From Cliona cf. orientalis (Eukaryota > Porifera > Demospongiae > Clionaida > Clionaidae), in contig OZ005689.1 of assembly GCA_963930775.1 (NCBI GenBank), positions 22,256,058 to 22,320,057 on the forward strand: DNA of 64,000 nt. The letters run 5' to 3'. This document shows positions 2,915 to 59,079 of the stretch, piece by piece (position 1 is the stretch's first letter; every line of letters begins with the position of its first letter). The notes under the pieces are model-generated. The model was not told the DNA's origin. It ran no database searches and worked only from the letters and a program-made list of their open reading frames with translations. Made by a program: the position numbers and the translations under genes.

Positions 2915-5650
2915 ATGGCTAAAAGGGCCCGCATGACGGTGGATGACGTCCTCCAGCACTGTGCTGACAGTGATGACTATGCTGAGTGTGACTATGATCC
3001 AGATGAGCCTGTCATGGAAGGTAGCGATGACGAATTCAGTGATTTGGAAGGAGATGAATCTGATGACGACATCGATGGTGGTGACTACAATGCTATGGAC
3101 AGTGCAGCAGCTTCCAGCAGTGCAGGTACCTCCAACTGGATCCCGAGTCAACATGGAGCACAACCATCAAGCGGCTGAACATTCAACCCTTTACCTCCCC
3201 AGTAGGCCCTACTCAAGACATCTCATCATCACCACTGGAAGTCTTCGACCTGTTTTTCTCGCCAGACCTGATGGAAAGAATAGTGAGACAGAGTAATGCA
3301 TATGCAAAGTCAGCAATGGGCAATGAGAAATATGAGAAATGGTCGAAGATAACAGTTGATGAGCTGAGAGCGTTCTTGGGATTTAGCGTGCTGATGGGAA
3401 TCAACCACCTGCCCTCCTTGAACGATTACTGGTCACGAGATCCTCGTCTAAGGTACGCTCCAGTGGCTGACCGCATCACCCGAGACAGATTTCGCGAGAT
3501 ATCCCGGTATCTTCACTTCGTGGATAATGATACCCTGGTACCACGTGGAGAGGATGGCCATGATCGTCTCGGGATGGTCAGACCACTGATAGACCACTTG
3601 TCCACCAAGTTTTCGGAAGCCTATGAGCCCCACCGTGACATCGCTGTTGATGAGGCAATGATCAAATTTCAGGGAAGATAATCGCTGAAACAATACATGC
3701 CACTGAAACCCACCAAGCGTGGGATCAAGGTGTGGGTTGCCGCAGACAGCACCAATGGCTACTTCTCGAGGTTTGAGGTCTACACAGGGAAGAAGAATAA
3801 TACCACTGAGCATGGTCCAGGAGCTAGAGTTGTGAAGACCCTCACCTCAGATCTGAAGGGAAAGTATCACCATATCTATTTTGACAACTATTTCACTACC
3901 CTGAAACTCCTGGAAGATCTTGAGAAAGACAACACGTACGCCTGCGGCACTGCGAGGAAAGATCGCAACGGTTTCCCTCCCCAGTTGAAGAAGCCAAACC
4001 TGAAGAGTAGGTGTGTGTGCATATAGGCATGTCCATGCATGCATGAGAGTGTGTATGTGTACAACCGTGATAATGCATGTGCATGCATGTGTGAAAATCC
4101 ATTTTTTGAGCATACATAATGTACATGTATATAGCACACATGTAAACACCATTCTAACTACTCCATGCCCATACACCGATTTATGTACGTGTGTGGAGTA
4201 GCTATGTGTACTGTAGAGTATATATGTACGCTCAAAAAATGGAACTCACACACATACGTACATACAAAACAATCCTATCCACTCCACACACACATACACA
4301 CATGGGTGTATGTGCATGTGTGCAGAGTAGCTACTCCTCGGCAAACATGTACGTATGCCGATCTCGGCACACATGTACATGTACATATATTGGTGTATGG
4401 TGTATGGTGTATGGTGTATGTACATGATGTGAGCCAAGCAGGTACTCTTCACACATGTATGCACACACATGGGTGTACATGTGTGCGGAGTAGCTACTCC
4501 ACACACATGTACACGCACCCATGCATGTACACGTGTACACGCATGCTCTGCACACTGTGTTCACACATGCACATACACCCATGTGTGCCAACTAGCTACT
4601 CCACACACATGGGTCTACTCCACACATATGTACACGCATACCCATGCGTGTACATGTGTGTGGAGTAGCTAGTCGGCACACATGGGTGTATGTGCCATGC
4701 GTGTACATGTGTGTGGAGTAGCTAGTCGGCATACATGGGTGTATGTGCATGTGTGAACACAGTGTGCAGAGCATGCGTGTACATGTGTGTGAAGTAGCTA
4801 GTCGGCACACATGGGTGTACGTGTGTATGTGAACACATGTACATGCACCCAAGTGTGCAGAGTAGTAGGTAGGTAGAATAGTGCATCAACATGTGGGCTA
4901 CATTGATATGTCACAAAGAACGGAATACACATGTCAACAGAATGTAGCTATAATAATACATGTCAGTACTGTAATAATAGATAAAATACACATCACACAG
5001 GTGACTTCCTTACGGTCCAGAAAGGCAAAGTTTGTGCAAGTTCCTGGATGGATAGAAAGATCGTCACAGTCATGTCTACCACCAGCCAGCCCGAGTCTAG
5101 TACTGTTCCCCGGCGTCAAAGGGATGGTTCAAGGTTATCTATTCCCTGCCCTATGTCCATCATGGACTACAACACCTTCATGGGCGGCGTCGACAGAGGA
5201 GATCAAGTCAGGCGCTATTACAGCTGCAGAACGAAATGCAGAAAATTTTATAAATACATATTTCACTTTCTGCTGGATGTGGCAATCACCAATGCCTTTA
5301 TTCTTCAAAAAGGATACTGTGAGGATGCACCCTTCAATTTCATCAAGGAGTTTCGCCTGAAGCTGGCCAGTGAGCTAATAGACTATTGCAGCAGAAGGCG
5401 AGCTGGTCGTAGTGGCGGAGTTGTGCGCTCTCTCCCCCTCCGACACTTTCCTACCACCATCCCTGAGAGCGATCCATCAAAAAAGGTAAAGCACGAGAGA
5501 GCACGCTGCACCAGGTGTTACAGCCGGAGCAAACGCAGCGTATACACCTCATGGTACTGCCCCAAGTGTCAGGTGTGGCTTTGTCATACGGGAGAGCAGA
5601 GCACAGACTGCTACATGTCCTGGCATGCCCAACACGTCCCTGAACTGTAA
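2915..5650 (+). pseudogene. piggyBac transposase, copy 1 (two coding exons)
   Basis: This is a piggyBac-family (PGBD-like) DDD transposase. Exon 1 runs from an ATG at 2915 to about 4006 and exon 2 from about 5001 to 5650. The N-terminus is acidic (DDEFSDLEGDESDDD). The catalytic acids are all visible: AVDEAMIKFQGR, YFDNYFTTLKL and FMGGVDRGDQ. The C-terminus is the cysteine-rich zinc domain usual in the family (CTRCYSRSKRS, then YCPKCQVWLCHTG). A GT/AG intron also sits just upstream of the ATG (about 2859-2902). Copy 2 at 57.5 kb shows two faults here: a frame change between about 3165 and 3195, and a TAA at 3679 directly after FQGR where copy 2 has serine. The internal intron, about 1 kb long, is filled by a minisatellite. 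TTAA-flanked termini were not located. Confidence 0.88.
4010..4880. repeat. CA/TG-rich minisatellite inside the piggyBac intron
   Basis: About 870 bases are built of repeated and inverted ACACATGTACAC and TGTGTGGAGTAGCTA blocks. Repeats such as GTGTGGAGTAGCTAGTCGGC followed by ACACATGGGTGTATGTGC recur at 4660-4810, and inverted versions occur at 4490-4620, so the transcript could fold into long hairpins. Open frames here on both strands are artefacts of the repeat. Confidence 0.85.
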
Positions 5651-26599: not shown

Positions 26600-29415
26600 G
26601 CACAAAAGTAGGCCGTGCGCAGCTTGGAAACTCTCTTGTGCACGTACGTATCCAAGTGGTGCACAAGTTTGAATACTGCCTGTGTGCCACTTGGAAACTG
26701 CTTGGGAAATGAACTCAATTTCCCAAGAGAGTATCCAAGGTTGTCATACTTGGAGTGTACAGCTTGTGCACATTTGCACACATTTTGGTCACATCTTGTA
26801 CACTACTTTGTGCACTTCTGAGGCTAGTACACCTTTGCACACTTTTTGCCCACTCCACAAGCACTATTGAATACTGCTAGTTCACAGCCATTAGATTCTA
26901 ATAATAACAATGATAATTAATTTATAACCATATAAGGTCAATATCATCATAATAACAATATTATTATTGTACAATGTAGATAATAATATAAGGTGTCCAT
27001 GGTCCATACTAATCTACGCCAGTTCAACATAGATCTTGACCTTTGTATAAAATATATCATTAGCATTGATAATGACACTCAGTGTGGTCTGCCAATGTAA
27101 ACTACACAAGTCCACAACATTTCAGGCCCACTATATATATTATACAATAAAGCACTGAATAGTGTAAAATTCCGGGCGTGTTGCAATAGCTATAGCCATG
27201 TACTCATGCTATAGCTATCATGTTGTAAATTTGTAAGCTAAGCCAGCAGCCTTGTTTCCAATGTATAGACCAGGTATGTAGCAGTTATCGTGGTAACAGA
27301 CACACACACAACACTCGCATAAAACGACTACCATAACCCTCATGCATGCACTGAGGGTTAATGACTATATTAATTTTAGTGCACATACCTGCATCAGTAG
27401 TTCACTCAGGAGCATCCTTAGGTAGGTTCCTTGTGGATGGTGCTCCATTTCTCCATACCGTCTTTGGCATAGTCCCCCCTTCCTCGGGACCTTCTTAAAC
27501 TATTGCATGTTTATCTAGCCGGCATATAAATTCATTCAGATCTGCGTAAATGCACATGACAGAATAATACTATTGTCAATATAACTACTACAAATGTACA
27601 TGTATATGGCATAACATTTTATTAGCAAGGAGATTGAAATTAGTACACACTGTAAACATGCAATTCTAATTGTAGCTCACCAAGCAAGCTGTCATCATTA
27701 CGGCCTGGGTGCCTCTCTTCAGTCAATGATGAGTCGTTCCAAACACTTTTCTTTTTTATTCAATATCACTGATCGACAATTATAAAATTCCTGAAGTTGA
27801 AATAAATATTTGAGTAGCACTGGCAGTGTGATTCTAACACTCCTACCCTATAAAAAGGTGCTCTCTGAATATCTTTCTCTTAGCATCTTCTTCCACCTTA
27901 GACTCACTTTCCTCCATGTCATCTATCTGCTTTCCACTGTGATCAAACACTATCGTATTTTCGACAAGCTGCAGCTGCATGCACACAGTAAGTCTCCCCA
28001 TAGTATAATACAGCAAGAATACTAGTCTTGTACCCAGCCCCCTTCACACACGGAAAGAGAAGGGGTCTGGATAAACGTATATATAGTGCCCGTATCGCTG
28101 ACGAATGCAGCACAGCAAACACACAACACAGCAAAACACTTGGCAGGCTCTATCTAGCTGAACACGGACTGTCAGCCGTGACTGACGAAGTCTGTGCACA
28201 GCAAACACACATGGGGGGTTCTATTTAGCTGAACACAGACTGTCAGCCGTGACTGACAAAGTCCATGCACAGCAAATTCAAATGGTGGGCTCTATTTAGC
28301 TGAACACAGACTGTCAGCCGTGACTGACGAAGTCCGCGCACAGCAAAAACACATGGGGGGCTCTATTCAGCTGAACACAGACTGTCAGCCTAGACTGACG
28401 AAGTCCGCGCACAGCCAAAACCTGGGGGGCTCTATTTAGCTGAACACAGACTGTCAGCCGTAACTGACGAAGTCCGCGCACAGCAAATTCAAATGGTGGG
28501 CTCTATTTAGCTGAACACAGACTGTCAGCCGTGACTGACGAAGTCCGCGCACAGCAAAAACACATGGGGGGCTCCATTTAGCTGAACACAGACTGTCAGC
28601 CTAGACTGACGAAGTCCGTGCACAGCCAAAACACATGGGGGAGGGGCTCTATTTAGCTGAACACAGACTGTCAGCCGTGACTGACGAAGTCCGCACACAA
28701 CAAAAACACATGACGGGGTCAACTTACATGTAGCTGAACACAGTCCGAGTCCGCGCAAAGCTAATACTCATGCTACTAAACTTACTCAATAGCAACACGC
28801 TTATAGCCGAGTATAAGGATTTAGGCTGGCGTGGCCGGTTCTCTTACTGATTGTTTGAATAGGCTTCATTTGTGCTGTCTACGATGGTGGGCCACGTACG
28901 GTACGGTAGGCTATTTAAAATTAATGTGTTCCTCGAGAATACCGACTTGAAATAAAATATTAAATCAGGTATGAAAGGTTGCCGTGATTTCGGTAGATAT
29001 ACTGCTACCCCATTTGGATCCCCTCATACACACACATTTAAGATACTCATCTATAAGGTCCTTTCCACCTGGCCTGATAAGTATGGCTACGGAATCAAAG
29101 GTAGCACGTCTGTCACGTCTCAGACTCTGACAGCTACTAGTAGCTAGCTGGGTGAGTTTTCTCACGCGTGTTCTGGCCTGGGCTCCTGACCTGCACGTGC
29201 TACATATCATAAGCGCTTAAGCGCATGTGCATATTAAAACTAACGTGCGCAAGCGTGTGGGCAAATGGAAAACACGTTTCGTGGTCTGGCTTAATAGTTT
29301 GCAAAGGGTTTGCAAGCTTGCATACTTGGCATGGTTGCAAACTTGTGCACTGGCTTGTGAATGTGAAGTGCACAAGTTTGAGAACTCTTGGAAACTGACA
29401 TTGTTCATGCTGTGC
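26600..29415. mobile_element. ~2.8-kb insertion within the retroelement
   Basis: Retroelement sequence stops near 26600 and resumes near 29415. The insert carries no recognisable protein. Both edge regions are rich in related words (CTTGGAAACT, TTGTGCAC, CACAAGTTTG at 26620-26830 and, partly inverted, at 29280-29410), suggesting that the edges belong to one non-autonomous element. Exact borders and target duplication could not be fixed. A 71-bp tandem array lies at 28148-28760. Confidence 0.55.
28148..28760. repeat. 71-bp tandem repeat, about 8-9 units
   Basis: Units begin CTCTATTTAGCTGAACACAG at 28148, 28219, 28290, 28361, 28430, 28501, 28572 and 28647, with a worn unit after that. Each unit contains the short palindrome GTCAGCCGTGACTGAC and ACGAAGTCCGCGCACAGC. 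Alternating unit types (ACACATGGGG and TTCAAATGGTGGG) suggest that the array also grew by a two-unit repeat. Confidence 0.92.
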
Positions 29416-33729: not shown

Positions 33730-35422
33730 TCAAGTATAAAAGTTATACCACTGGCCGCATTTTGAGCATGAAACCCACCAGGTACGGGAGTTGGGTCTCT
33801 TCATGGTACAAATGCCTCGTGGGCAGACACTCTTGTCATCTTTTGCTATGCTCTTCTCCCTCTCTGGACAAATCATTGCCCCTGAAGTTGCCTCCATTGA
33901 CACAAGTGGCTTGTGTCCGGGTGTGGTCAGAGGCTGATGGTCACCCCCGTCTTCATCTGAACTTGACTTGGAGTGTCCGGGTGAGGTCAGAGGCTGATGG
34001 TCACCCTCGTCTTCATCTGAACTTGACTTGGAGTGTCTGGGTGAGGTCAGAGGCTGATGGTCACCCTCGTCTTCATCTGAACTTGACTTGGAGTGTCCGG
34101 GTGAGGTCAGAGGCTGATGGTCACCCTCGTCTTCATCTGAACTTGACTTGGACACATTGTCAACTGGCTTTGGTGTTGAGGTCATCAGAGGCTGATGATG
34201 ATCGAATTGATTACCATGTGCTAGAGAGATATTATGAATATTATTATTATGAATAAGGAAACCAGGATAATTTTAGTACTTATATAGATCATCCAGAGAT
34301 TCCTGCCCAGGTATGATCAGAGGCTGATGCCCACCATCTTGATCAAGATCTTCCTCTGAACTTGAGGACATGTCCAGCTGAGATTCCTCACTTTTGTCTT
34401 CAGTACCATCATTGACAGTAAGATCACAGCATGCTATTATTATTATGACATAGTGTAATGTGAGCAGTATGTTATTGCTGCAGTGTACTTTAATCATTAA
34501 CTTTACCTTTATCTATAGCTTCCAGTAGATATGTGGGGATAGAAGATCGAGGAATATATGAAACTGATCTTTGGTTTTTTCCTGTCTTCGTGCTCACAAC
34601 ACTTGCTGTCAATGTCGGCTTCAGGAAGACCCCTGACTCACTGTTGCTGCCACCAGCTCTCTTAATGGCCTCCTTCACATCGCCTTCCACATTCGGACTC
34701 AGTGATAGATATTCACGAACCATGGGAATATAGAGAGCAATAGCGGGCCCACTCCTGCGATTAACTGATGGCCTGAACATTTGAAGAACCTGCCAAAATT
34801 TTCATTGTAATGATATAACTTACTAGTCTAAGACCATTACAGTTATTATAATAAGTATTAATGAACCTCTTGAATCGTTAGTGGCTGAAGTACAGAGCAA
34901 AGGTCGAGAAGAAACCTGGACAGAGTACCCCCACCAGTTAAGTGCAGATGTAAAATAATCTTTGCCCAAGTTTCCTCAAAGAAATGCTTGATGGTTTGAA
35001 ACTCGATTATTCTCCTTGGAATACTTCTACAAAGCTGAAGTGAAAAAACAATTGGTATGCTTCACAAATTTGTGTCCTTAGATTTGTAGTTTTAAATTAT
35101 TTCTCCATTAAGTTACCAATTTTGCAGCAAAAAGTATCAGGGCATAGCACTTTTGTACACGGAAATGAACAGATGGAAGACGTTTCATAACCATTGGAAG
35201 AATTTTCTCCTGGTACTCCTGCGCTGATTGACTTTGGAGACTCTGGCCAAGATATATTAGCAGCCCTAGGCTCGCTGATGCTTTGGAGCGTCCCTGCTTG
35301 AGAACTCCTTGGACGTGTAACTGTGACTGAGCAATTTGATGTGTAGGTTTGAAGAAGGGTATGTGAATGATTCTCTGCAAGTTCCTGTAAGAAGACAACC
35401 ATATGAAGAAGATTGAGGACAT
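33730..35422 (-). CDS. Spliced gene with 20-aa acidic repeats and C-terminal zinc-like motif
   Basis: Minus-strand exons join in phase: about 35422-35119 (GVLKQGRSKASASLGLLIYL), about 35034-34868 (SIPRRIIEFQTIKHFFEETW), about 34795-34505 (MFRPSVNRRSGPAIALYIPM), about 34440-34280 (SSSEEDLDQDGGHQPL) and about 34200-33730. The last exon contains four copies of SKSSSDEDEGDHQPLTSPGH, encoded by a 60-bp DNA repeat, then CPRGICTMKRPNSRTWWVSC and SKCGQWYNF before a TGA. The C..C/W..C..C..WY pattern resembles a PHD-like or related zinc fold. The N-terminus and first exon are unsure. I do not recognise the family. It is divergent from the RAG1-like gene, whose first recognised exon lies about 1.2 kb away, which may mean both belong to one element, but nothing proves this. 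No break was seen in the four downstream exons. Confidence 0.5.
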
Positions 35423-35930
35423 TCCACACTGTCTGACACATGTTCACACCATAGCAAGTATAGGGAAAATGCACTAGAAATGTTATTTTTATATAATAAT
35501 TCCATTATGATTAATATTTAAGCTTTGTACAACTTACAGTGATCTTCTATAGATTATTTGCTTTGGATTGATACCAAACATAAAAAATTCCATGATACAC
35601 AAGTTGCGCCATTACAATTCAAAGGATATTCAGGGTTTGTATTACAAAGCATAGGGAATACCAGAGAGTGCAAAGTTCAAATGCGTTTCTTTCCAAATAC
35701 GCGAATTTTGAAATTTTATACAACTCAGTCTGTGCTGTAGTAGAAGGTGTTGATTCTATCTGACAAGGATACAGTGTGTAAAAGAGTTCTGTGTTTGCGC
35801 CATTTTCGTTAAAAGATAAAGTAAAAATTTGAAGGTAAGTCCATGTGGCCGTGGGCTACTTGGATACGTGTTAAAGAGTTGATTTCTCACAGAATAGGCT
35901 CAGTCAGCACTAAACGGTTCACAGTCATCA

Positions 35931-36061
35931 TGGGTATTAAATACCTAGCTGTTTTCACAGCTGCTCTGTTCCTGCTCGTGCTGATTAAGTGCTGCTCTGC
36001 TGCTGGGGGGAGTATGGCAACTGAAGATCCCTGTTCAGCCTATCTCACTGTGTTGATTACC
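35931..36061 (+). CDS. Possible first exon with signal peptide
   Basis: An ATG opens MGIKYLAVFTAALFLLVLIK, a textbook hydrophobic signal sequence, then CCSAAGG as a likely cleavage zone, and the frame runs into a GTAAGTG donor at about 36062. No following exon of a secreted protein was found before the transposase exon at 36.6 kb, so it is either a host exon stranded by insertion or a chance frame. Confidence 0.35.
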
Positions 36062-36629
36062 AAGTAAGTGATGGCCTTCCTATTAAAACTAGTTATATAC
36101 CTACTGTATGAGGGGTGAACAGTGCCAAAACTAGGCACCATACACTTCCCATTTATACAGTGTAGAGGGGCATGTTTTATGAAGTGGATGGTGTATGTTT
36201 TATGAAGTGGAGGGGATATGCTTTTCTGTTTGTGGAATGGAGGGGGTACGTACCGTATTTAGTGAATTGGAGGAGGCATCTTTAGTGAAGTGGAGGTGGC
36301 ATGCATGTTTAGTCCAGTGGAGCTGAGGGTCCAGGATACTGGTTTGGTGTGGTGACCTATATTTTGTGCAGAATTAAGATCTAGGGTTGTGAAGAGCTGC
36401 ATATGTGCACACTTTGTGACCACACCCAAAAAACTTTCATCCCAGGTCACCATTTGTGGCTAACCATATTCTGAGCATACATGTACAATGCAGAACACTG
36501 ACATGGGTTGTCTGCTGTTGATCATCCATAATGTTCAAGCATCTACCCATTCTAGAATACATTACCTACCTTATCCATACGCTTACACTTACTTAAATCA
36601 TTAGTTATTGCTTTTGTCTTTATATTTAG

Positions 36630-39409
36630 TCGGCTGCTGTATGACTTGACGTACAATGATCCCTCCCGTCCCTCTGAGTCTGCAGTTAGACGTTGGATTA
36701 AAGGAATCAACAATGCTCTCCATGCTGGACTTCGGTTTTCAGAACGGCTTGCAAAGACTTCGATCCAACGAGCCAATTACTTGCGCACAAAGTCAAGGGG
36801 TCACATGGGAGGTCGAGCTCGTCAACGATTCTTTTCCAGTACATGGACTTTGCAGATCACAGCTGATGAAATAGACAAGACTCTATCGGATGAAAATTCT
36901 CGGTTACAACAGGAGGTTACCAAATTACAGGAACAGCTACATGCATCATCCCGTATTCTTAGGGACATTCAATCTAATGGTGAACACTCTGTTAGCCGAA
37001 AACGTACGCCTAAGCACTACTCCAAACGTCACAAAAGAAGAGTAAAAAAGCAGAGAGTAGTGGAATGTTCAGCTGCGCTGTCTTGGCTTGAAGATGGACT
37101 TACTCCAGTGCAAATCGTTGTCCTGAACAAGGAAAGTAAGCAGCTAGACAGAATCACACTTCAAACAGACATTGCGAGAGCGCTGAATATAGGTGATGAG
37201 CAGATCAGTGATCAAGACGTCGACATGATTTCAATGATGCAAGGACAAGTACAACATATCGGGCAGTGCATACCATGAAATGGCTTCTCTGTGTCAACAA
37301 ATGCCTCGGCACTACCGCTTGAAACAGCGAATCTCTGAGCTAAATACTAAATGGAATATTCGACCTACACCCGAAGGTACCATTGGTGTCCAGCAACCTC
37401 TGAAGGAGCGTTTAGAATATTGCATTGAGCGATTGGTAAGTTAGGATGTGTATTAATTAGAATTTCGGTATACCACACACATACAGTGGCGCCATGGCCT
37501 ATGTCCATGTGATTTACAATGTACTGTACACGTACATGACATGTACATATACAGTATACATGTAGCTGTATGGGTGAGTATCAATTAGAATAATTTCTAC
37601 TAAGTAGGTGTACATATGTACATGTAAATGTACATGTACATGTAATTACTATTGTTGGGGCTCTGTGCTTTGGTGATTTAATTATCCCGGCAGACTCCGT
37701 GAACATAGTTTGGGTATAGGGTTGACTTTCGCCCTTAAAGCTGGAGGGGGGGAGTTTGGGTTCCTAAGGGTGGTCGTGGCTCAGTGGTAGAGTGCTGGCG
37801 GCTTAAAGTCAGTGGCCCTGGGTTCGATTCCCGGCAGCTGCCCGGATTATTTCTCTTCCAGCTAGCTTTAGGATGTAGATGGGGTGATGCATACCTGTGG
37901 TGCTCTGGTACAGTTCGGCTGCTATCAACACAGACAAGTGAGAGTGTGTGTGCCCATCCTTGTTAAGCTAAGAACTATCATGTATATGCATGATGCATAG
38001 TAGTATATAGTACAGCGTATAATAATTTTTACGTATCTTAAATTTCAGATTGAAAACTCTCCAAATGCTCCATTCATAGAGGAAGGAAAGCTAAGAATAA
38101 AGCTAACAGGTGATGGAACCAATATAGGAAAACATTTGCACGTCGTGAATTTTGCTTTCACGATTCTTGAAGAAGGAGACCGAGCCATAGCGTCGCTGGC
38201 AATCATTGTATTGCCATCTTCAAAGAATCTGAGAGCTACGATGCAATGAAAGTATGTCTTAGCGATATCGTAAAGGATGTGAAGGAGCTAGAGACAATTC
38301 AGGTGCTTGATCATAGTTTCAGTCTTGAATTTTATCTAGGGGGGGACCGGAAATTTCTTGCAATGATCACAGGGATAGATTCGGCAACTTCCACTCATGC
38401 TTGCATCTGGTGCAAGTGTCCCTCCCTTGAACGCTACGACAGTTCTCAGACGTGGTCCATTAGTGATCCTTCTCTTGGCGCTAGAACAATAGAAGAAAAT
38501 GCATTGATTTCAAAATCTCGACTTAAGAAGTACAATGTCTCACATGAGCCAATCTTCCAGACCATCCCATTGACACGAGTCATAGTCGACAATTTGCATA
38601 TGTTCCTTAGGGTTGCTGATACTTTAATTGATCTTTTGCTGTTAGAACTCAGACGTTTAGACAAAATCGAGAGGGCAACTAAAGTCAAGAGCTTAGACCA
38701 GCTGCAGTACATCAAAAAGTATGAAGCCACCTTACAGTCGCTGGGAATTAGTGGCTTTGCATTTTGGATTGGACGTGAATCGAAAAAACTTAAGTGTCGT
38801 ACCCTGACTGGACCGGAAAAGCTGCTTTTATTTGAAAAATTGAATATTGTGGTAACTTTCCCGGAGATACCCAATAGCGAAGAAGTGCAAACCCTGTGGC
38901 GAGAGCTTTTGAAAATCAACAGATTGTTGTCCGTACGCCCTTGTGATCTGTCAGAGCATACCAGTAAGAAATTTGAGCAGAAATCAAAAGAGTTTGTCGG
39001 TATGTTCACCGACATCTACCCAGCGAAGCATGTGACGCCTTATATGCATGCTATGATGATGCACGTAAGCCAATTTATGGAGATTCATGGAGCTATACTT
39101 CCATTTACGCAACATGGAATGGAGAAGTACGATTCGATGACTAAGGACTATTTTCGTTCTTCTTCTCACCGTGGACAAGAATGCCTCACTCAGATTCTTC
39201 AGAAACAGAATCACCTAGAACACCTTGAACACACAGGAGGAAAGCGAGCAAAGAAATTTTTAGTCACGTGTGGAAATTGTGGTGAGCAAGGTCACAATAA
39301 GAGCACCTGTACAAAACCTTGTAAGAACTGTGGTCATGCACCCTATTGTGGACATTTAGTTAAGAAAGATACCAGTAGTGCTAGAATCCCACAGTGCCTC
39401 GATCAGTAG
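36630..39409 (+). pseudogene. RAG1/Transib-superfamily-like DDE transposase with C-terminal zinc knuckle
   Basis: Coding runs 36630-37434, then an intron, then 38048-39409. The N-terminal part holds a coiled coil (LSDENSRLQQEVTKLQEQL) and a basic stretch (SKRHKRRVKKQR). After the intron, LRIKLTGDGTNIG followed by FAFTIL parallels the first catalytic block of RAG1 (CDGMGD...FSFTIM). YLGGDRKFL supplies the second acid, HACIWC the CxxC and PYMHAMMMHV the HxxxxH of the RAG1 zinc site, and GMEKYDS (39122) the third acid. The tail has CGNCGEQGHNKSTC plus a second CxxC cluster, recalling the zinc knuckle at the end of invertebrate RAG1-like proteins. Two frame changes, near 37236 and 38194, break this copy. 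These motif matches are by eye from memory; the superfamily call is inference, and the protein may be a sister family. No RAG2-like (kelch) gene is seen. Confidence 0.65.
37770..37960 (+). mobile_element. tRNA-derived SINE in the transposase intron
   Basis: TGGCTCAGTGGTAGAGTGC matches an RNA polymerase III A box and GGTTCGATTCCC a B box, about 35 bases apart. The flanks do not pair as an acceptor stem, and related-looking tail sequence continues for about 110 bases, so a SINE fits better than a tRNA gene. Confidence 0.65.
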
Positions 39410-39813: not shown

Positions 39814-40146
39814 ATGGAGGGAGATAAAACATTCCTGGTATGGAGGAGGATATCTTTATTGGCACTCACAATAAGATCTTATGCTGTCATTCACAACCTG
39901 CAGATCAGCCCCCCACAGTGGTATCTTGATAATAACCGAGGGGGTTGTTTCAAATGCATAATAACATGCTTCCTCTGGATAGTTGGTTTTCGACATGTGG
40001 AAGGCGTAAGTATTCCAACAAGCTTAATTAAGTTATGTATGTACTTAATCATGTGTACAATTGTGCATAAACAGGAACTTATCAATCTAGATGATTTTGA
40101 AGCATATCAGGAAAAAAGAGGATTAAGACCTAAGGCTAAAAAGTAA
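39814..40146 (+). CDS. Unrecognised short frame, possible terminal exon
   Basis: The frame ends INLDDFEAYQEKRGLRPKAKK and stop, a charged and plausible C-terminus. The middle (CIITCFLWIVGF) is hydrophobic and may be intronic. There is no family match and no proven splice partner. Confidence 0.2.
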   Translation: MEGDKTFLVWRRISLLALTIRSYAVIHNLQISPPQWYLDNNRGGCFKCIITCFLWIVGFRHVEGVSIPTSLIKLCMYLIMCTIVHKQELINLDDFEAYQEKRGLRPKAKK

Positions 40147-40446
40147 GCTAATTATGTACAATATTTCATGATTAATTAATTTTTATTATTACATGTATTT
40201 TGCTAAATTATGCAAGTGACATTTACACAATTTGTCCTGAACCAGATATCAATCACATGGTTCCCTCACTACAGAGCTAGCTAGCCATAGAGATTGCTGA
40301 AACAAACGTGCACATGTACCACTTTCTATTTATAGCACACCACAATTCAGTTCAATTTTTCGTTTGATCTTGCATGGTGGTAATACATGTATATTGTAAT
40401 GCAATGTCATGTATAATAAAAATGTATATTAAATAAAGTCTGCTAC

Positions 40447-41173
40447 CTTGCTCTTGTTTCCGTCACCTCGCACAAAACTGAATACCATTGCATGTGGTTG
40501 TTCGATGTAAACAGGATCAAACGTTAGCGTACCATCCTCCTTACGCAAGACTTCATAGTCCAGTATTGGTTGGCGCATGGCGCATGGTGAAGTGAAATGA
40601 AACAGTCTCACGTATGACATAGGAAAAATCTCCAATTGGGTTTGTGACCCTAAAATGCCACTTCTCTCCCAGGAGCTCATCGAGGTCACCGTAACATGTG
40701 ATCGTGTACCGCTCCTTGCTTAACGTATCATCAGTGGAACCACCCCTTCTGCGTCCAGCAAGGATTCCCTTGTGTTGCAGCAATCTAAAGGTGCCAAGGT
40801 CACAGGGGACCTGGATTCTTACTTCTGGCTCTTCAGATCGGCTGGGCTTCAGACTCTTCTTGATGGAACAAGCTAGCTCTGTCAACGGAGAGTAGGACTC
40901 TTCCTCACTACTTGGCAGAAAACCAGGTTTGTTCAAGATTACTTCACTTCTAGGCCGCCACTCGTCATACTCGCTTCCGTATCCTGTATAATGGATCCTT
41001 ACTCGAGCCCCCACTTCTTCCACCACTTCAATATCATACAGCTTGTCCTGCGGTTTGGCTCTTTTTCGTCGAGGTAGTCCGAAATCGGCTACTGTAGCTG
41101 CTTCAACGCTGCGAGTAGACATTTCTCTCGCTTTTCGGTTCTTGATTGCACCGAGACACTGAAGATTTGCCAT
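40447..41173 (-). CDS. Tudor-knot (chromo-barrel) domain protein, one probable frameshift
   Basis: On the minus strand an ATG at 41173 opens a protein with a Tudor-knot/chromo-barrel domain at about residues 43-78: LYDIEVVEEVGARVRIHYTG then YGSEYDEWRPRSEV. Such domains bind modified histone tails or nucleic acid in chromatin proteins. The rest, including RIQVPCDLGTFRLLQHKG and CYGDLDELLGEKWHFRV, is not a domain I know. Near 40600-40640 the coding pattern passes to another frame (MRQPILDYEVLRKEDG to FVRGDGNKSK), so this copy has a 1-base shift there. After GNKSK either a GTAGCA donor or the TAA a few codons on ends it. A decayed relative lies at 24.9-25.05 kb. The gene may be a transposon passenger rather than a host gene. 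Confidence 0.55.
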
Positions 41174-50503: not shown

Positions 50504-53500
50504 GAGGTACCTTAAGAAGAGAGAAAAAGAGCAAGAAAAGCTAAAGTCCCACCAACAAAGGTAGCTATGAACTAACCACTAACCAGCTGTATGCACCTAT
50601 AATTCAAGTGCATCTTATTTTGGATCCAACAGCAGAAACCAGCTGAAGTAGAATCCACTTATGAGCTAGGCCGAAAAGCAAGGATCAGAGCCAACCAATA
50701 CAGACAACTGTTTTATCACAGGTAATTTGAAAGTGCGATGTAATATACAGTTACTCCATCAGGATTGTAGGTTAACTGTAATTACCGTAGTCTCCCGGGT
50801 AAGCGCCCATGGGCACTCTACCATAACACGCTGATTTCGCCATACTGGGCGCTTACCATGTGCAAAAATCGAAATAGGCGGGGCCAGTTTTGTGGGCGTG
50901 GCAGTAAGCTAGACTCGTGGTAAGCGCTCTATATAGAGCGCACGCTTCGCGTTTTATAGGAAGCGACGAGAAAGGTTTAAACTACACAAGCTGCCAGAGA
51001 AAGTTAGCTAGTCATCTGAATCAGAGAAGGGATCGAGATCGTCATCTTCGCCAGCACCCTCCTGATCGGCTTCACCGTCGCCGTCCTCGAGATCCCTCGG
51101 GATTTATTCTCAAATGAAGTGATCTTCGGACCCATCGACTGCGTTAGAGTTAAATATTATTGTTATATATTTTATATTGCTGTGTAGAGGCAGTGATCTT
51201 GTAAATTTTTTCTTGATGGGCGCTTGCCATGTTGATCTAGGCGCAGCCTACCTGGGCGCTTAACATTCGACTGGGCAAAACAGTTACCTGGGCGCTTACC
51301 CAGGAGTGGGCGCTTGCCCGGGAGACTACGGTAGTATATCCTAATTATAATCTGTTATCTTCATTTCTCTATCATTTATTCATAGAAGACCGATGAAGGG
51401 CCAAATGCCGGGTAAATCTTTTATGTGAAACTATGAAAATACATTTTTATACTTGCAATTGGTGTTCTGCAGGGATGACATACTTACACTCATAGACAGT
51501 AAGGAGAGCTCTCTATGCAAGTTCATACGGAAAAGAGATGGTATGTACGGTTGCCAGGGTTCTCCCCAGAAAATTTTAGAGGTGATAAAAATGGAGCCGG
51601 CAATCATAGGCATGAACTTACACGTAATTATTAAAATTATTGATAATTGCACATTTTATAATAAATATAAAACAATACTGCATTTCATCACAAACAATAC
51701 TGATTTCACAATTAAGTCATGTTGACAGTCTTCTATTTTTTTTCTTTGCCCATTAAGTTACTGCTTCTGTAACGGGATAGTCTTCAACTCTTGGACCTTC
51801 TGTCACAATACGCAATAGCGAATCAAGAGTTTGTTCACTCATTCGGTTTCTGATACTTGTCTTGATTAATTTTAGTTTTGAAAATGTCGTTTCAACGTCA
51901 GCTGTATGGATGAGAATTACTCGACAGATTTTCCCAATCTTACTTATGTTCGGATAAACAGAAGCTGCAAGAGATGTAGGGAAGCAGAGGTCACTTACTA
52001 TATCACTCTGCATGCTTTAATTGGCTGCAATTGTCTTTTGGGTACTGCCTAAAGCTAGCCCACTCTTCAAGACACTCCTGTACATCAATAGCACCATCAA
52101 ATTGCTTGGCAAGACTCTCTATCTCTTTATTTCCGTACTGAACAAAAGTATTTAATTCTTCTACAGTGGGTACTGTAGACAATTTTGGTAACTTAAGGGG
52201 GTTTAATACATCAAAGGCAGCCATTATAGACTTGTCATCAAACCTGTTCTGTATGTTTTTTATTAAGCAGCAAAGGAATGGTTTCAAAGTACTGTTCTCC
52301 AAGATTAGACTGCTTGATGATGTCAATTCCTGCAGAGGTAAGTTGCTCCAAAAACTGGTCTAGTCCACCAAGATTAATGTCACCCACAATTTTGAGCTGC
52401 TCTAAAGAGCTAATAGTAGATGCTACCATCCTAGGAATAATACTATAATCACATTCAGTGATATGAAAACATTTGGACAAATGTGTAACATGGGGAAGAA
52501 CATCACACAACAAGAGCATCGTGCAGATAAATCTGTATTCAGATACCAAACGGCTCAGACCTACAGCTTTGGCATCTGATCTTTCTTCCCCTTCCCGCTG
52601 TAAGCTTAAAACAACAGATACAAAGCAAGCCTTGAGCCTATTCACACTTCTCTGTGCTAAGCCACCTTGTTGAACACGGAGCCAGCAATTTCCCTTTTTC
52701 CTGTACAAGTGTCTGTATGGCCTGTAGACCTGCTGAACGCACAGCACTGTTATCAAAATAGTCAAACAACTGACGTAGAATATTGTTGAATTTCTTCACA
52801 TAAGGAATTGCATCACCAGCTTGTGATGATGCTAAGTTTAGCCTATGTGCTGCACAGTGCACACCAATTGCTGAAGGTGCAGTTTCCTTCAGACGAGCAA
52901 CTACTCCGTTACGACAACCAATCATAGTCGAAGCTCCATCAGTCCCTATGCCTCTTAGCTTTATTGTGTCTAGCTGTGCCTCAGAAATAAATTCACATAT
53001 TCTCTCTCTTACTGTACTAGCACACACACTAATACGAGTGTCCATTTCTGTATGTGTACTAGCATCCTGTAAGGCATCTATTTCAGGTTGTAGATAGCAT
53101 GATTTCAGAGCTCCAGATTCCTTATCTATATAGCGACCATGAATAGCTAGTTGTTCTGTCACAGAACAATCTGTCGTTTCGTCAAACATGAGGGCAAAGT
53201 GATCGGATTCTCTCATTTCATTCAAACTTTTTGTCTCGATTATTTCAGATAAAATAAAGAGCATTTCCTGAATAGATCTCATGCTCGTATAAGTTGCATT
53301 CCGTGCAATTTGTATATCGGATTTCACACTAACACCCAGTAGTTCCAAAAAGTCTAATAGTGGCTCAAAGTTAGTTGTATGTGGGATTCTTTGTTTTGCA
53401 AGGAAGTATAGACTCGCAAAAGCCTGCTCTATTCCCCTTCTTGGTATGACAGGATTGGTAAGGTGTGCTATATTCTGCGACTGAAATCTCAGCTCTAGTC

Positions 53501-54390
53501 TTACTGATTCCATATGTGCACTGCTATTTTCATGTGAAACAATACTCTGTAATCTTAAGCGTCTGCATGGAGTTTGGTTCCAGATATCATGGCCAAATGA
53601 ATGTTGATTGTACTTTCTACAGTTTACAAAGCATTCCCTTTCCCTGTAAGTATTCCAACCAATGTTCTCTCCCATTTAGCCACTTCTTTGAAAATGTTAC
53701 AGCCTGTTTAGAACCACTACTAGTTTCTGTAATACTCGTATCTGTAGAAGTAGTTACTCTACTAGTTTCAGGCTCACTTTCAGGACTGTCCTCTTCGCTA
53801 CTTCTCCAGTTGGCTCATCATTGTTTTTCCTAGCTCTTTTTACAGTTGATTATTCACTGAGGTCCTCCCCAGGAATTCTTTTTCGTGCTGAAAAAAACCT
53901 CAAGAGCTACATTACCAAGAGCCTAGCCTAGCTGCCTCCGCGAGTACACGTGCTAGCGTGGTATTGCACAATCTGCACACATGACACATTATTATATTAT
54001 TATTGCACGGTCACGTGCAATTTCATTCTAAATCATGCACACCAATAAACATTGAAGCATGCAAAGCACTTGCTGGCTGTCTAGAAGTAACAGATATCCT
54101 CAGCACTGGTCGGAAAAGGTGAGTGGTGGTCGATTCTACTGTAGTGCTGGTCGGGAGATTACCAGAACCGACCAGTGTGGGGAGAACCCTGGGTTGCATG
54201 CGTATAATTTATTGGCTAATAGTATTTCTTGTATGCATATCCCTCTACAGAAATGTATGCAGAATTGGTGTTCACTGAGAACATTGCTGTTGCAGACGAC
54301 TTAATGGACATAGCCCTCTACGAAGTTATTCCAAGAGACCAAGAACTCCGACGTGCCGAGAAGTATGTGGCTGAGCTGGAGGTTATTACA
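50504..54390 (+). CDS. Exon chain of an unrecognised gene with transposons in its introns (part 2)
   Basis: Exon-like blocks with GT/AG borders lie in one orientation: about 50504-50561 (RYLKKREKEQEKLKSHQQ), 50633-50721 (ESTYELGRKARIRANQYRQL), about 51387-51410 (RPMKGQMPG), about 51472-51541 (DDILTLIDSKESSLCKFIRK) and about 54250-54381 (MYAELVFTENIAVADDLMDI to KYVAELE). Phases look compatible but were not fully checked. If the chain is real, a MITE (50785-51331) and a minus-strand hAT (51753-53880) sit in its introns, which would make this one of the few host genes here. The charged, helical composition suggests coiled coil. The family is not recognised. Confidence 0.35.
50785..51331. mobile_element. 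547-bp MITE, CCGTAGTCTCCCGGG termini, TA target
   Basis: Left end CCGTAGTCTCCCGGGTAAGC; the right end inverted reads CCGTAGTCTCCCGGGCAAGC. TA flanks both sides (50783-50784, 51332-51333). Tandem CTGGGCGCTTACC words precede the right end. Confidence 0.9.
51753..53880 (-). pseudogene. hAT transposase (ZMYM/TTF-type zinc finger), broken
   Basis: The minus-strand protein has a TTF-type zinc finger (YRERECFVNCRKYNQ, then SIVSHENSSAH), the hAT catalytic region (HFALMFDETTDCSVTEQLAI, then GIGTDGASTMIGCRNG and GVHCAAHRLNLA) and the C-terminal dimerisation block (IHTADVETTFSKLKLIKTSI). Blocks follow each other as 53675-52638, 52765-52238, 52326-52003 and 52013-51753. Frame changes fall near 53665, near 52660-52740, near 52300 and near 52010. 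hAT transposases cut and paste with 8-base target duplications; terminal repeats were not found here. The element stands on the strand opposite to a putative exon chain and probably lies in one of its introns. Confidence 0.88.
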
Positions 54391-57290: not shown

Positions 57291-59079
57291 ACTAGAACAA
57301 CCCGCTGTGTCTTGAATAGGCAGTGCTACTTTATCGCGGTCTTTGCGAGGGCTTCCTGAGTGGTTGCACTTTACTCTGGTGTGGTCAAGTTACGTGGCTG
57401 CCATAGGGGATTTTCCTGGAATTTGACCTTGAAGATTATAGTACGTTCCTGAGGTAAGATTATATTAAATGCATGCAGGTGGTACTGTTACCACGGACAG
57501 CAATAACTTATCATAACAAAAAAATTGCAGTAATACTGAGCTAGAGAATGGCTAGGAGGCTGCCATCTACAGAAGCTGCGCTAGAGGAGCTTGAGCTTGA
57601 TGACTTTGATGTTGATGAACCCATGATGGCAGGTAGTGATGACGAATTCGATGACATTGAAGATGTGTACCTGGAGGATGTGGAAGACGACGATGATGAT
57701 GACAGTAATGGTGCTGCTCCACCCCAACCCCCTCCCAATGATACACAAAGCTCAAGCTCAGGCTCCCTCCCTTCCTGGTCTTCCAGTCTTACATCTATCA
57801 CCATCCCTCCCTTCAGCTCACCAGTGGGTCCTACGATCGACATCCCAGAGTCACCAATTGACACCTTTGACCTCATGTTCACGCCTGATCTTCTGGATGA
57901 CATCGTGCAGGAGACCAACTTGTACGCAAAGGTGATGGGAGAAGAAAAGTACAGTGCTTGGAATAAAGTCACAAGCGAAGAGCTCAGAGCATACATTGGC
58001 TTCAGCATCTTGATTGGCATCAACCATCTGCCTGCCCTCGTTGATTACTGGAGCACAGAGATCCAGCCCTCCACTACTCGGCTATAGCAGATAGAATAAC
58101 AAGAGATAGGTTTCGAGAAATCACACGTTACCTTCACTTTGTGGACAATGCCAGTCTCACTCCAAGGGGATCTCCTGGTTACGACCAGCTTGGTAAGGGT
58201 AAGGTGCAGCCTGTGATAAACCATCTCATCACGCTTCTCAGACCTTTACGATCCCCACCAAGAGGTACCGGGTGACGAAGCAATAATCAAGTTCACAGGT
58301 CGCTCCACCTTGAAACAGTACATGCCACTGAAGAGAGGCATCAAGGTGTGGGCCCTCGCTGACAGCCATAACGGGTATTTTCACAAGTTCCAAGTCTACA
58401 CTGGCTGACAATTTCTTTACCAGCGAGGAGCTTCTGCGTGACCTCGCTGAAGACAACATCTACGCATGCGGGACGGCACGGAAGGATCGCAGAGGCTTTC
58501 CTCAAGCTCTGAAGACGGCAAAGCTAAGAATAGGTCTGTACATAATATTAATGCAGTTCATGTGTGAGCGTGTGTGTCCAGCCTGATGGGATAGTGCCGG
58601 AACGGAAGGGGGTGGATGACGGTCCCACCACGACCTCTGTGTTTGCGACTACAGCAGTTCCTTTGCGAGTTGCAGTCGGAACGACTTGAAGTCCTTGAAG
58701 GGGCAAGAGCCTGAAGCCTTGAGCAGGAGGTAAGCATTGGTGATTGCCACATCAAAGAGAAAGAAAAAAATATATTTATAAAATTTTCTACTCTTTGATC
58801 TGCAGCGGTAGTACCCACGCAGCTGGTCCCCACAATCAACTCCACCCATGAACTTATAGGAAATTATGCTGTCTGGGCAGGGTACTTCCACACTTGTTCC
58901 GTCTCGCTGCTTCCTGTTGACTGTGCCACAACTTGAAGGCTGACAGTTGGTACTCATCACCATCACCGTCTTTCTGTCCATCCAGGCACTTGCTGTCACT
59001 TTTCCAGCCTGGACAGTTACTGACTCCCATCTGTTGAATAGTACGTTCTGTGTCACCAATAAGTATATTACTTGTCTCT

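What the first reader, a model, noticed from the sequence alone, without database searches (positions are those of the whole stretch)
36630..39409. RAG1/Transib-like transposase with CxxC/HxxxxH zinc site and C-terminal zinc knuckle
The protein shows, in the right order, the landmarks of the RAG1 core: GDGTNIG then FAFTIL (RAG1: DGMG...FSFTIM), GGDRKFL (second acid), CIWC, PIFQTIPLTRVIVDNLHMF (RAG1: PFIETVPSIDALHCDIGNA), HAMMMH, and an acid in GMEKYDS. A CCHC knuckle at the end recalls the tail of invertebrate RAG1-like proteins. If correct, it is a divergent RAG1-superfamily transposase in an early animal lineage, of direct interest for the origin of V(D)J recombination.
Basis: partly seen in the sequence, partly recalled or inferred. 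Interest (0 to 1): 0.9.

Follow-up and report, generated by a model that had tools for sequence, protein, structure and literature searches.

The report
Broken distant cousin of RAG1 transposase
A decayed gene in this eukaryotic DNA encodes a distant relative of RAG1, the enzyme that cuts antibody genes in vertebrates; it is about as far from RAG1 as a known Transib jumping-gene enzyme is, but it also carries a zinc-binding tail like that of invertebrate RAG1-like proteins.

Summary

The similarity to RAG1 is real. All 5 of 5 solved-structure sequences matched at E<=10 by the catalytic part are RAG1, best E only 0.1; the reversed sequence matched 1 unrelated. Pairwise BLASTP gives E=8e-9; local alignment stands 14 SD above shuffles, 0 of 2000 reaching it. 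Six of seven landmark residues tested (D708, C727, C730, H937, H942, E962) align with the same residue; the first acid (D600) was not placed.

Distance: window to RAG1 15.0 bits, RAG1 to HzTransib 16.6, RAG1 to lancelet RAG1L 210.8. So it lies in the RAG1/Transib superfamily, outside the RAG1/RAG1L clade, yet has the exact Cx2Cx3GHx4C tail of RAG1L.

No convincing terminal repeats, RAG2-like gene, second copy or relative was found; the structure model failed (pLDDT 34.7). A convergent, also frameshifted gene with a histone-reader-like domain lies 1 kb downstream. Host unknown.

The parts
36630..37236 (+). Coding stretch A: N-terminal part, coiled-coil-like (DENSRLQQEVTKLQEQL) followed by a very basic stretch (KRTPKHYSKRHKRRVKKQR)
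   Evidence: open frame after an acceptor-like TTTAG; weak matches, several to coiled-coil or zipper families, all below their cut-offs
37238..37435 (+). Coding stretch B (CKDKYNISGSAYHEMAS...CIERL), one frame away from A: first frameshift at about 37237
37436..38048 (+). Intron of 613 bp, GTAAGT...TTTCAG, phase 0; carries a tRNA-derived (SINE-like) insert at 37770-37842
   Evidence: Rfam tRNA 37.5 bits, ARAGORN tRNA-??? with a four-base anticodon
38049..38192 (+). Coding stretch C: GDGTNIG (proposed first acid, D codon 38112-38114) and FAFTIL
   Evidence: D600 equivalence inferred, not placed by alignment
38195..39409 (+). Coding stretch D, after the second frameshift (about 38193), to the stop: rest of RNase H-like core, zinc site, C-terminal tail. 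ATG-initiated ORF 38246-39409 lies inside it
   Evidence: RAG1 alignment
38345..38347 (+). Second acid, aligned with RAG1 D708 (GGDRKFL)
38402..38413 (+). CIWC, aligned with RAG1 C727 and C730 (ZnC2)
39047..39064 (+). HAMMMH, aligned with RAG1 H937 and H942 (ZnH2)
39122..39124 (+). Third acid, aligned with RAG1 E962 (GMEKYDS); 259 residues after the second acid, 254 in mouse RAG1
39269..39310 (+). Zinc knuckle CGNCGEQGHNKSTC = Cx2Cx3GHx4C, the motif that defines CTT* of lancelet RAG1L
   Evidence: motif as given in PMC7204232
40429..41173 (-). Convergent neighbouring gene, chromo-barrel/MBT-like domain (YDIEVVEEVGARVRIHYTGYGSEYDEWRPRSEV), apparently with one frameshift near 40600; membership in the same element not shown

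Best explanation
The locus is a decayed copy of a cut-and-paste DNA transposon's transposase of the RAG1/Transib superfamily, about as distant from vertebrate RAG1 as HzTransib is, with a RAG1L/Subgroup I-type zinc-knuckle tail. Inferred mechanism for its intact relatives: the protein pairs up (possibly through the N-terminal coiled coil), the basic N-terminal stretch and the C-terminal knuckle bind the element's ends, and an RNase H-like DDE core, held together by a zinc ion between CxxC and HxxxxH, nicks each end, makes a hairpin on the flanking DNA and joins the freed ends to a new site. Shown here: homology, the second and third acids, the zinc residues, the knuckle motif, splice-site-like intron borders and the frameshifts. 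Inferred: first acid, fold, DNA binding, cutting chemistry, mobility.
For: 5 of 5 matches at E<=10 among 177,635 solved-structure sequences are RAG1 when the tail is left out; reversed control 1 unrelated match, E=0.68. BLASTP with composition adjustment 42 bits, E=8e-9 for the pair, 66/308 identical. Smith-Waterman 109 against shuffle mean 35.1, SD 5.3, max 66, 0 of 2000; with the longer core 118 against max 71 in 1000 shuffles. Of seven landmark residues tested, six (D708, C727, C730, H937, H942, E962) align with the same residue without being forced. D-to-E spacing 259 against 254. Yardstick: mouse RAG1 to HzTransib scores 16.6 bits, E=0.033 by the same program; the window's best score against RAG1 is 15.0 bits, E=0.1. 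RAG1 is the only Pfam family listed at E<=1 for the catalytic ORF and at E<=10 for that ORF without the tail. Tail motif exact. Other transposon fragments in the window fit a mobile-element-rich region.
Against: The Pfam RAG1 match is under its gathering score (13.2 and 13.6 bits against 25), is absent for the longer read-throughs of 721 and 453 aa and for a 162-aa C-terminal piece; NCBIfam gives no match. The phmmer E of 0.1 is not significant alone; the pairwise 8e-9 becomes about 1e-3 if multiplied by the 177,635 sequences among which RAG1 was picked. A profile of mouse RAG1 plus this protein scored HzTransib and RAG1L lower, not higher (13.8 against 16.6; 193.9 against 210.8). First acid not aligned; the proposed first and the second acid are 78 residues apart, 108 in RAG1. 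No heptamer ends with duplication and no second copy. Structure model unusable. The N-terminal half matched nothing of RAG1.
Confidence: 0.85

Rival explanations
1. It is a true RAG1L of the RAG1/RAG2-like transposon lineage (ProtoRAG kind), merely fast-evolving.
For: Exact Cx2Cx3GHx4C tail (PMC7204232); D-to-E spacing as in RAG1; phmmer lists RAG1 but not HzTransib at E<=10 (it does not list lancelet RAG1L either).
Against: 21-25% identity to mouse RAG1 core, while PMC7204232 puts Transib under 22% against RAG1/RAG1L and PMC4411706 puts TransibSU over 30%; 15.0 bits against 210.8 for lancelet RAG1L; no kelch or PHD family listed at E<=1 in the six frames of 31-46 kb or, in short pieces, on the - strand of 39.4-43.4 kb (low sensitivity, the RAG1 match itself is lost in the long translation); no RING-type match in the N-terminal part.
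Confidence: 0.08
2. It is a domesticated host gene derived from such a transposase, spliced to an upstream signal-peptide-like exon (35930-36063), and the two frameshifts are assembly errors.
For: Consensus-like splice sites; the upstream exon would join in frame; no convincing ends found; only one copy in the window.
Against: In-frame joining has a 1 in 3 chance; two frameshifts here and apparently one in the neighbouring gene; a signal peptide would be odd on a nuclear transposase; no expression or second-species data.
Confidence: 0.12
3. It belongs to another DDE superfamily with a zinc insert (Chapaev, CACTA/EnSpm, hAT), and the RAG1 resemblance is the shared deep ancestry of these groups.
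For: Score against RAG1 is modest; PMC4411706 places Chapaev and Chapaev3 as distant clades inside the Transib superfamily (passages), so a place near them is not excluded.
Against: No other transposase family is listed at E<=1 or E<=10 in Pfam, and no other transposase at E<=10 in the solved structures; the aligned stretches around CxxC and HxxxxHVxE...G...GxE are colinear with RAG1. Which of those groups have a Pfam model or a solved structure was not checked.
Confidence: 0.12

Closest known systems
Transib transposases, Subgroup I in the sense of Tao et al. 2022 (PMC9435367, whole text read)
   Same: Similarity to RAG1 at the level of HzTransib; C-terminal knuckle of the kind called CTT1 (earlier CTT*), which that paper gives to Subgroup I and RAG1L, with a different tail in Subgroup II
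   Different: Asymmetric terminal repeats and 5-bp duplications not found here; direct comparison with Subgroup I sequences could not be made; alpha11-alpha12 region not tested
Invertebrate RAG1L (ProtoRAG / RAGL transposons; PMC7204232, passages read)
   Same: CTT* motif Cx2Cx3GHx4C exact; zinc residues and second and third acids
   Different: Far lower similarity to RAG1 than lancelet RAG1L has; no RAG2L gene found, weak test; no RING or RAG1-type zinc-finger match in the N-terminus
Vertebrate RAG1 core
   Same: Six of seven tested catalytic and zinc residues, spacing of the second and third acids
   Different: 21-25% identity; first acid not placed; knuckle tail present here; broken copy; spliced gene
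HzTransib (6pqn and kin)
   Same: About equal similarity to RAG1
   Different: No direct match between the window protein and 6pqn at E<=10

Membership tests
RAG1/Transib superfamily (protein) | Sequence homology with the RAG1 core | tested here: met
   yardstick. The Pfam cut-off is not reached
RAG1/Transib superfamily (protein) | DDE triad: second and third acids | tested here: met
   D708 and E962 aligned with D and E
RAG1/Transib superfamily (protein) | DDE triad: first acid | tested here: inconclusive
   GDGTNIG lies upstream as expected, but the global alignment is off by two residues and the local one does not reach it
RAG1/Transib superfamily (protein) | CxxC...HxxxxH zinc site between second and third acids | tested here: met
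   C727, C730, H937, H942 all aligned with identical residues
RAG1/Transib superfamily (protein) | RNase H fold | tested here: inconclusive
   single-sequence model of stretch D only, mean pLDDT 34.7, no fold search made with it
Transib/RAGL transposon (element) | Terminal repeats beginning CACWRTG-like and 5-bp target duplication | tested here: not met
   no such pair between 33.0-36.6 kb and 39.4-40.45 or 41.17-44.5 kb (40.45-41.17 kb not searched). A search for any 14-bp repeats with a 5-bp duplication gave one AT-rich pair, at the level of shuffles (0-2 in ten). Ends of a decayed copy may be lost. The element is not filed as a Transib transposon; only the protein is placed in the superfamily
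RAG1L clade | C-terminal Cx2Cx3GHx4C motif | tested here: met
   definition from PMC7204232. The same pattern is a general retroviral-type zinc knuckle (nucleocapsid proteins among weak hits)
RAG1L clade | High similarity to RAG1 core (TransibSU over 30% identity, PMC4411706) | tested here: not met
   21-25%; 15.0 bits against 210.8 for lancelet RAG1L
RAGL transposon | Convergent RAG2-like gene (kelch and PHD) | tested here: inconclusive
   no such family listed, but the long translation lost the known RAG1 match, so sensitivity is low; the convergent gene present is chromo-barrel/MBT-like
Transib Subgroup I | alpha11-alpha12 region and place in the tree | not testable with these tools
   no Transib sequences were obtained

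The most novel reading that the evidence does not exclude
The transposase and the convergent downstream gene at 41173-40429 are two genes of one element: a RAG-like transposon in which the place of RAG2 (kelch plus a histone-reading PHD finger) is taken by a different histone-reader module of the chromo-barrel/MBT kind. That would mean RAG1-type transposases have recruited chromatin-reading partners more than once, tail to tail.
Probability: 0.1. Interest if true: 0.85.

Novelty: new member of a known kind. Interest (0 to 1): 0.5.

Why it matters
RAG1 in vertebrate immunity descends from transposases of this superfamily, and whether RAGL came from Transib or the reverse, and which domains are ancestral, is still discussed (PMC7204232, PMC9435367). 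A protein at Transib distance that keeps the RAG1L-type tail bears on the claim that the tail is ancestral. Intact copies, if found, would be a useful outgroup. This one broken copy settles nothing by itself.

Tried and rejected
Relatives elsewhere: none in viral contigs with the ORF, two degenerate motifs, a third looser motif, the neighbour gene or the mouse RAG1 segment (searches had 3, 4 and 9 pattern matches that tblastn did not confirm); none in the prokaryote genome contigs (26 pattern matches not confirmed); two matches of a degenerate motif there (L001, L002) lie in frames of 123 and 88 aa, and tblastn of the ORF against both loci gives only weak, short matches (best E=0.62); no RAG1-family match in the two genomes they lie in (0 of 2); none in phages or plasmids, nor in plasmids with the mouse RAG1 segment. 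So no alignment of the family could be made.

Structure: the 404-residue stretch D alone gave pLDDT 34.7; not used for any fold search. The fold was of stretch D only because no single four-letter word was found that reads through the second frameshift.

Ends: no heptamer repeats with duplication; one AT-rich pair (34850/39432) at the level of shuffles. One CACTGTG at 36046 and one CACAGTG-type site at 39914 flank the transposase, but the 5-bp flanks differ and the sequences past the heptamer do not match; such heptamers are expected about once per 4 kb by base count; rejected.

RAG2-like partner: not found, weak test. A profile with RAG1 added did not bring Transib nearer.

Papers: I saw no report of this locus or of RAG1L in sponges in the listings of searches (17, 43 and 58 returned nothing; others listed 20 of 116, 20 of 31 and 10 of 13 papers), nor in the passages read of PMC12220107, PMC13337447 and PMC8201067. 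Two further papers were not held. I recall, from no call, that predicted proteins with a motif like FTQQGLEKYND are common in cnidarian and sponge gene sets; not tested.

Full report
What is there. No genome is held for the window; introns and other transposon fragments mark it as eukaryotic. The finding's motifs are all present on the + strand, spread over two frames within 38048-39409 and three within 36630-39409. The best gene model is: coding stretch A 36630-37236; a frameshift; stretch B 37238-37435; a phase-0 intron 37436-38048 (613 bp) with GTAAGT and TTTCAG borders; stretch C 38049-38192; a second frameshift; stretch D 38195-39409 with the stop. On both sides of each frameshift an open frame reads on, so the breaks are young or are assembly indels. 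The intron holds a tRNA-derived insert at 37770-37842.

Is the RAG1 resemblance real? The catalytic part without its tail (397 aa, X at the second frameshift) was compared with 177,635 solved-structure sequences. Five matched at E<=10 and all five are RAG1, best E=0.1. The exactly reversed sequence matched one unrelated protein at E=0.68. BLASTP of ORF 38246-39406 against the mouse RAG1 segment gave 42 bits, E=8e-9 for the single comparison; multiplied by the size of the set from which RAG1 emerged this is about 1e-3. Smith-Waterman with the mouse segment gave 109 against a shuffle mean of 35.1 (SD 5.3, maximum 66; 0 of 2000 shuffles and 0 of 1000 local shuffles reached it). In 630 chunks covering the six frames of the window the three best scores are from this locus (90, 79, 60), the third barely above the next one elsewhere (56). 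Pfam's RAG1 model is the only one listed for the catalytic ORF at E<=1, or at E<=10 when the tail is left out, yet under its curated cut-off (13.2 and 13.6 bits against 25). It is not listed for the longer read-throughs, nor for a 162-aa C-terminal piece, and NCBIfam lists nothing.

Landmarks. Seven residues were tested against mouse RAG1 599-982. In the unconstrained local alignment D708, C727, C730, H937, H942 and E962 meet the same residue in the window protein: GGDRKFL, CIWC, HAMMMH, GMEKYDS. The seventh, D600, is not settled: GDGTNIG is in the right place, but the local alignment does not reach it, the global one is off by two residues, and MAFFT opens a gap there. Second and third acid are 259 residues apart, 254 in mouse RAG1; from the proposed first acid to the second there are 78, against 108 in mouse RAG1. 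The roles of these residues, their numbers, and the species names of the chains called zebrafish, lancelet and Helicoverpa (Hz) here are my own knowledge; the tool outputs name the molecules only, and mouse for one.

How close? The same program scores mouse RAG1 against the accepted relative HzTransib (6pqn) at 16.6 bits, E=0.033, and against lancelet RAG1L (6b40) at 210.8 bits. The window protein's best score against RAG1 is 15.0 bits. So it stands about as far from RAG1 as HzTransib does and well outside the RAG1/RAG1L clade. Identity is 21% to 25%. PMC7204232 (passages read) says that Transib stays under 22% with RAG1 and RAG1L; PMC9435367 gives an average of 26.2% over RAG1L cores and Transib together. 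A two-sequence profile of RAG1 plus the window protein scored HzTransib and RAG1L lower, not higher; this gives no support to a special tie with either.

The tail. CGNCGEQGHNKSTC at 39269-39310 is exactly Cx2Cx3GHx4C and occurs once in 127,996 codons of six-frame translation. PMC7204232 names this motif as what defines the C-terminal tail (CTT*) of lancelet RAG1L and finds it in essentially all RAG1L of protostomes and deuterostome invertebrates. PMC9435367 (whole text read) gives this tail to RAG1L and to Subgroup I Transib, and a different tail to Subgroup II. The same pattern is also the general retroviral-type zinc knuckle, and nucleocapsid proteins are among the weak hits of the full ORF, so the motif alone proves nothing; in its place, 49 residues after the third acid, it is suggestive. 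The most economical filing is therefore a superfamily member near Transib Subgroup I or a separate deep branch.

What could not be shown. No relatives were found in the collections searched, which is expected as these hold prokaryotes, phages, plasmids and viruses; metagenome contigs were not searched. Hence no tree, no deep alignment, and a useless structure model (pLDDT 34.7). No heptamer-type terminal repeats with a duplication were found and no second copy in the window. The N-terminal half (A, B and C) matched nothing of RAG1 among the solved structures; it shows a coiled-coil-like stretch and a very basic stretch.

The neighbour. On the - strand, 41173-40429, convergent and about 1 kb away, lies a gene, apparently also with one frameshift. 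Its first 187 residues match, at E<=10, 20 sequences: 14 named lethal(3)malignant brain tumor-like, 4 named mortality factor 4-like or EAF3, and 2 KIAA-named, best E=2e-4, though summed over three repeats of the target and weak for each (MBT in Pfam E=0.019 under its cut-off when a 55-aa piece is given; nothing at E<=0.1 for the whole ORF). That these are MBT and chromo-barrel reader domains, KIAA entries included, is my own knowledge. RAGL transposons also carry a convergent partner, RAG2L, with a kelch domain and a PHD finger (PMC7204232). That this gene belongs to the same element is a guess that rests on adjacency, orientation and shared decay alone.

Verdict.

Noticed in passing
window 40429-41173 (-): Convergent gene with a chromo-barrel/MBT-like reader domain and apparently one frameshift; its C-terminal part (VFSFVRGDGNK) matches no Pfam family
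   Followed up: partly
window 35930-36063 (+): Signal-peptide-like exon (MGIKYLAVFTAALFLLVLIKCCSA...) with a GTAAGT donor that would splice in frame onto the first transposase stretch
   Followed up: partly
window 37770-37842 (+): tRNA-derived, SINE-like sequence inside the transposase intron (Rfam tRNA 37.5 bits)
   Followed up: no
window 5048-5650 (+) and 57548-58087 (+): piggyBac-type transposase fragments (DDE_Tnp_1_7, E 6.8e-10 and 8.3e-16)
   Followed up: no
window 52638-53675 (-): DUF4371 / C17orf113-type zinc finger protein, probably hAT-like (E 4.5e-7, under its cut-off)
   Followed up: no
window 39814-40146 (+): 110-aa ORF between the two convergent genes with no Pfam match at E<=0.1
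   Followed up: partly
window 33913-34152 and 28127-28743: Tandem arrays: 60-bp units about 97% alike, and an array with copies offset by about 71 bp
   Followed up: no
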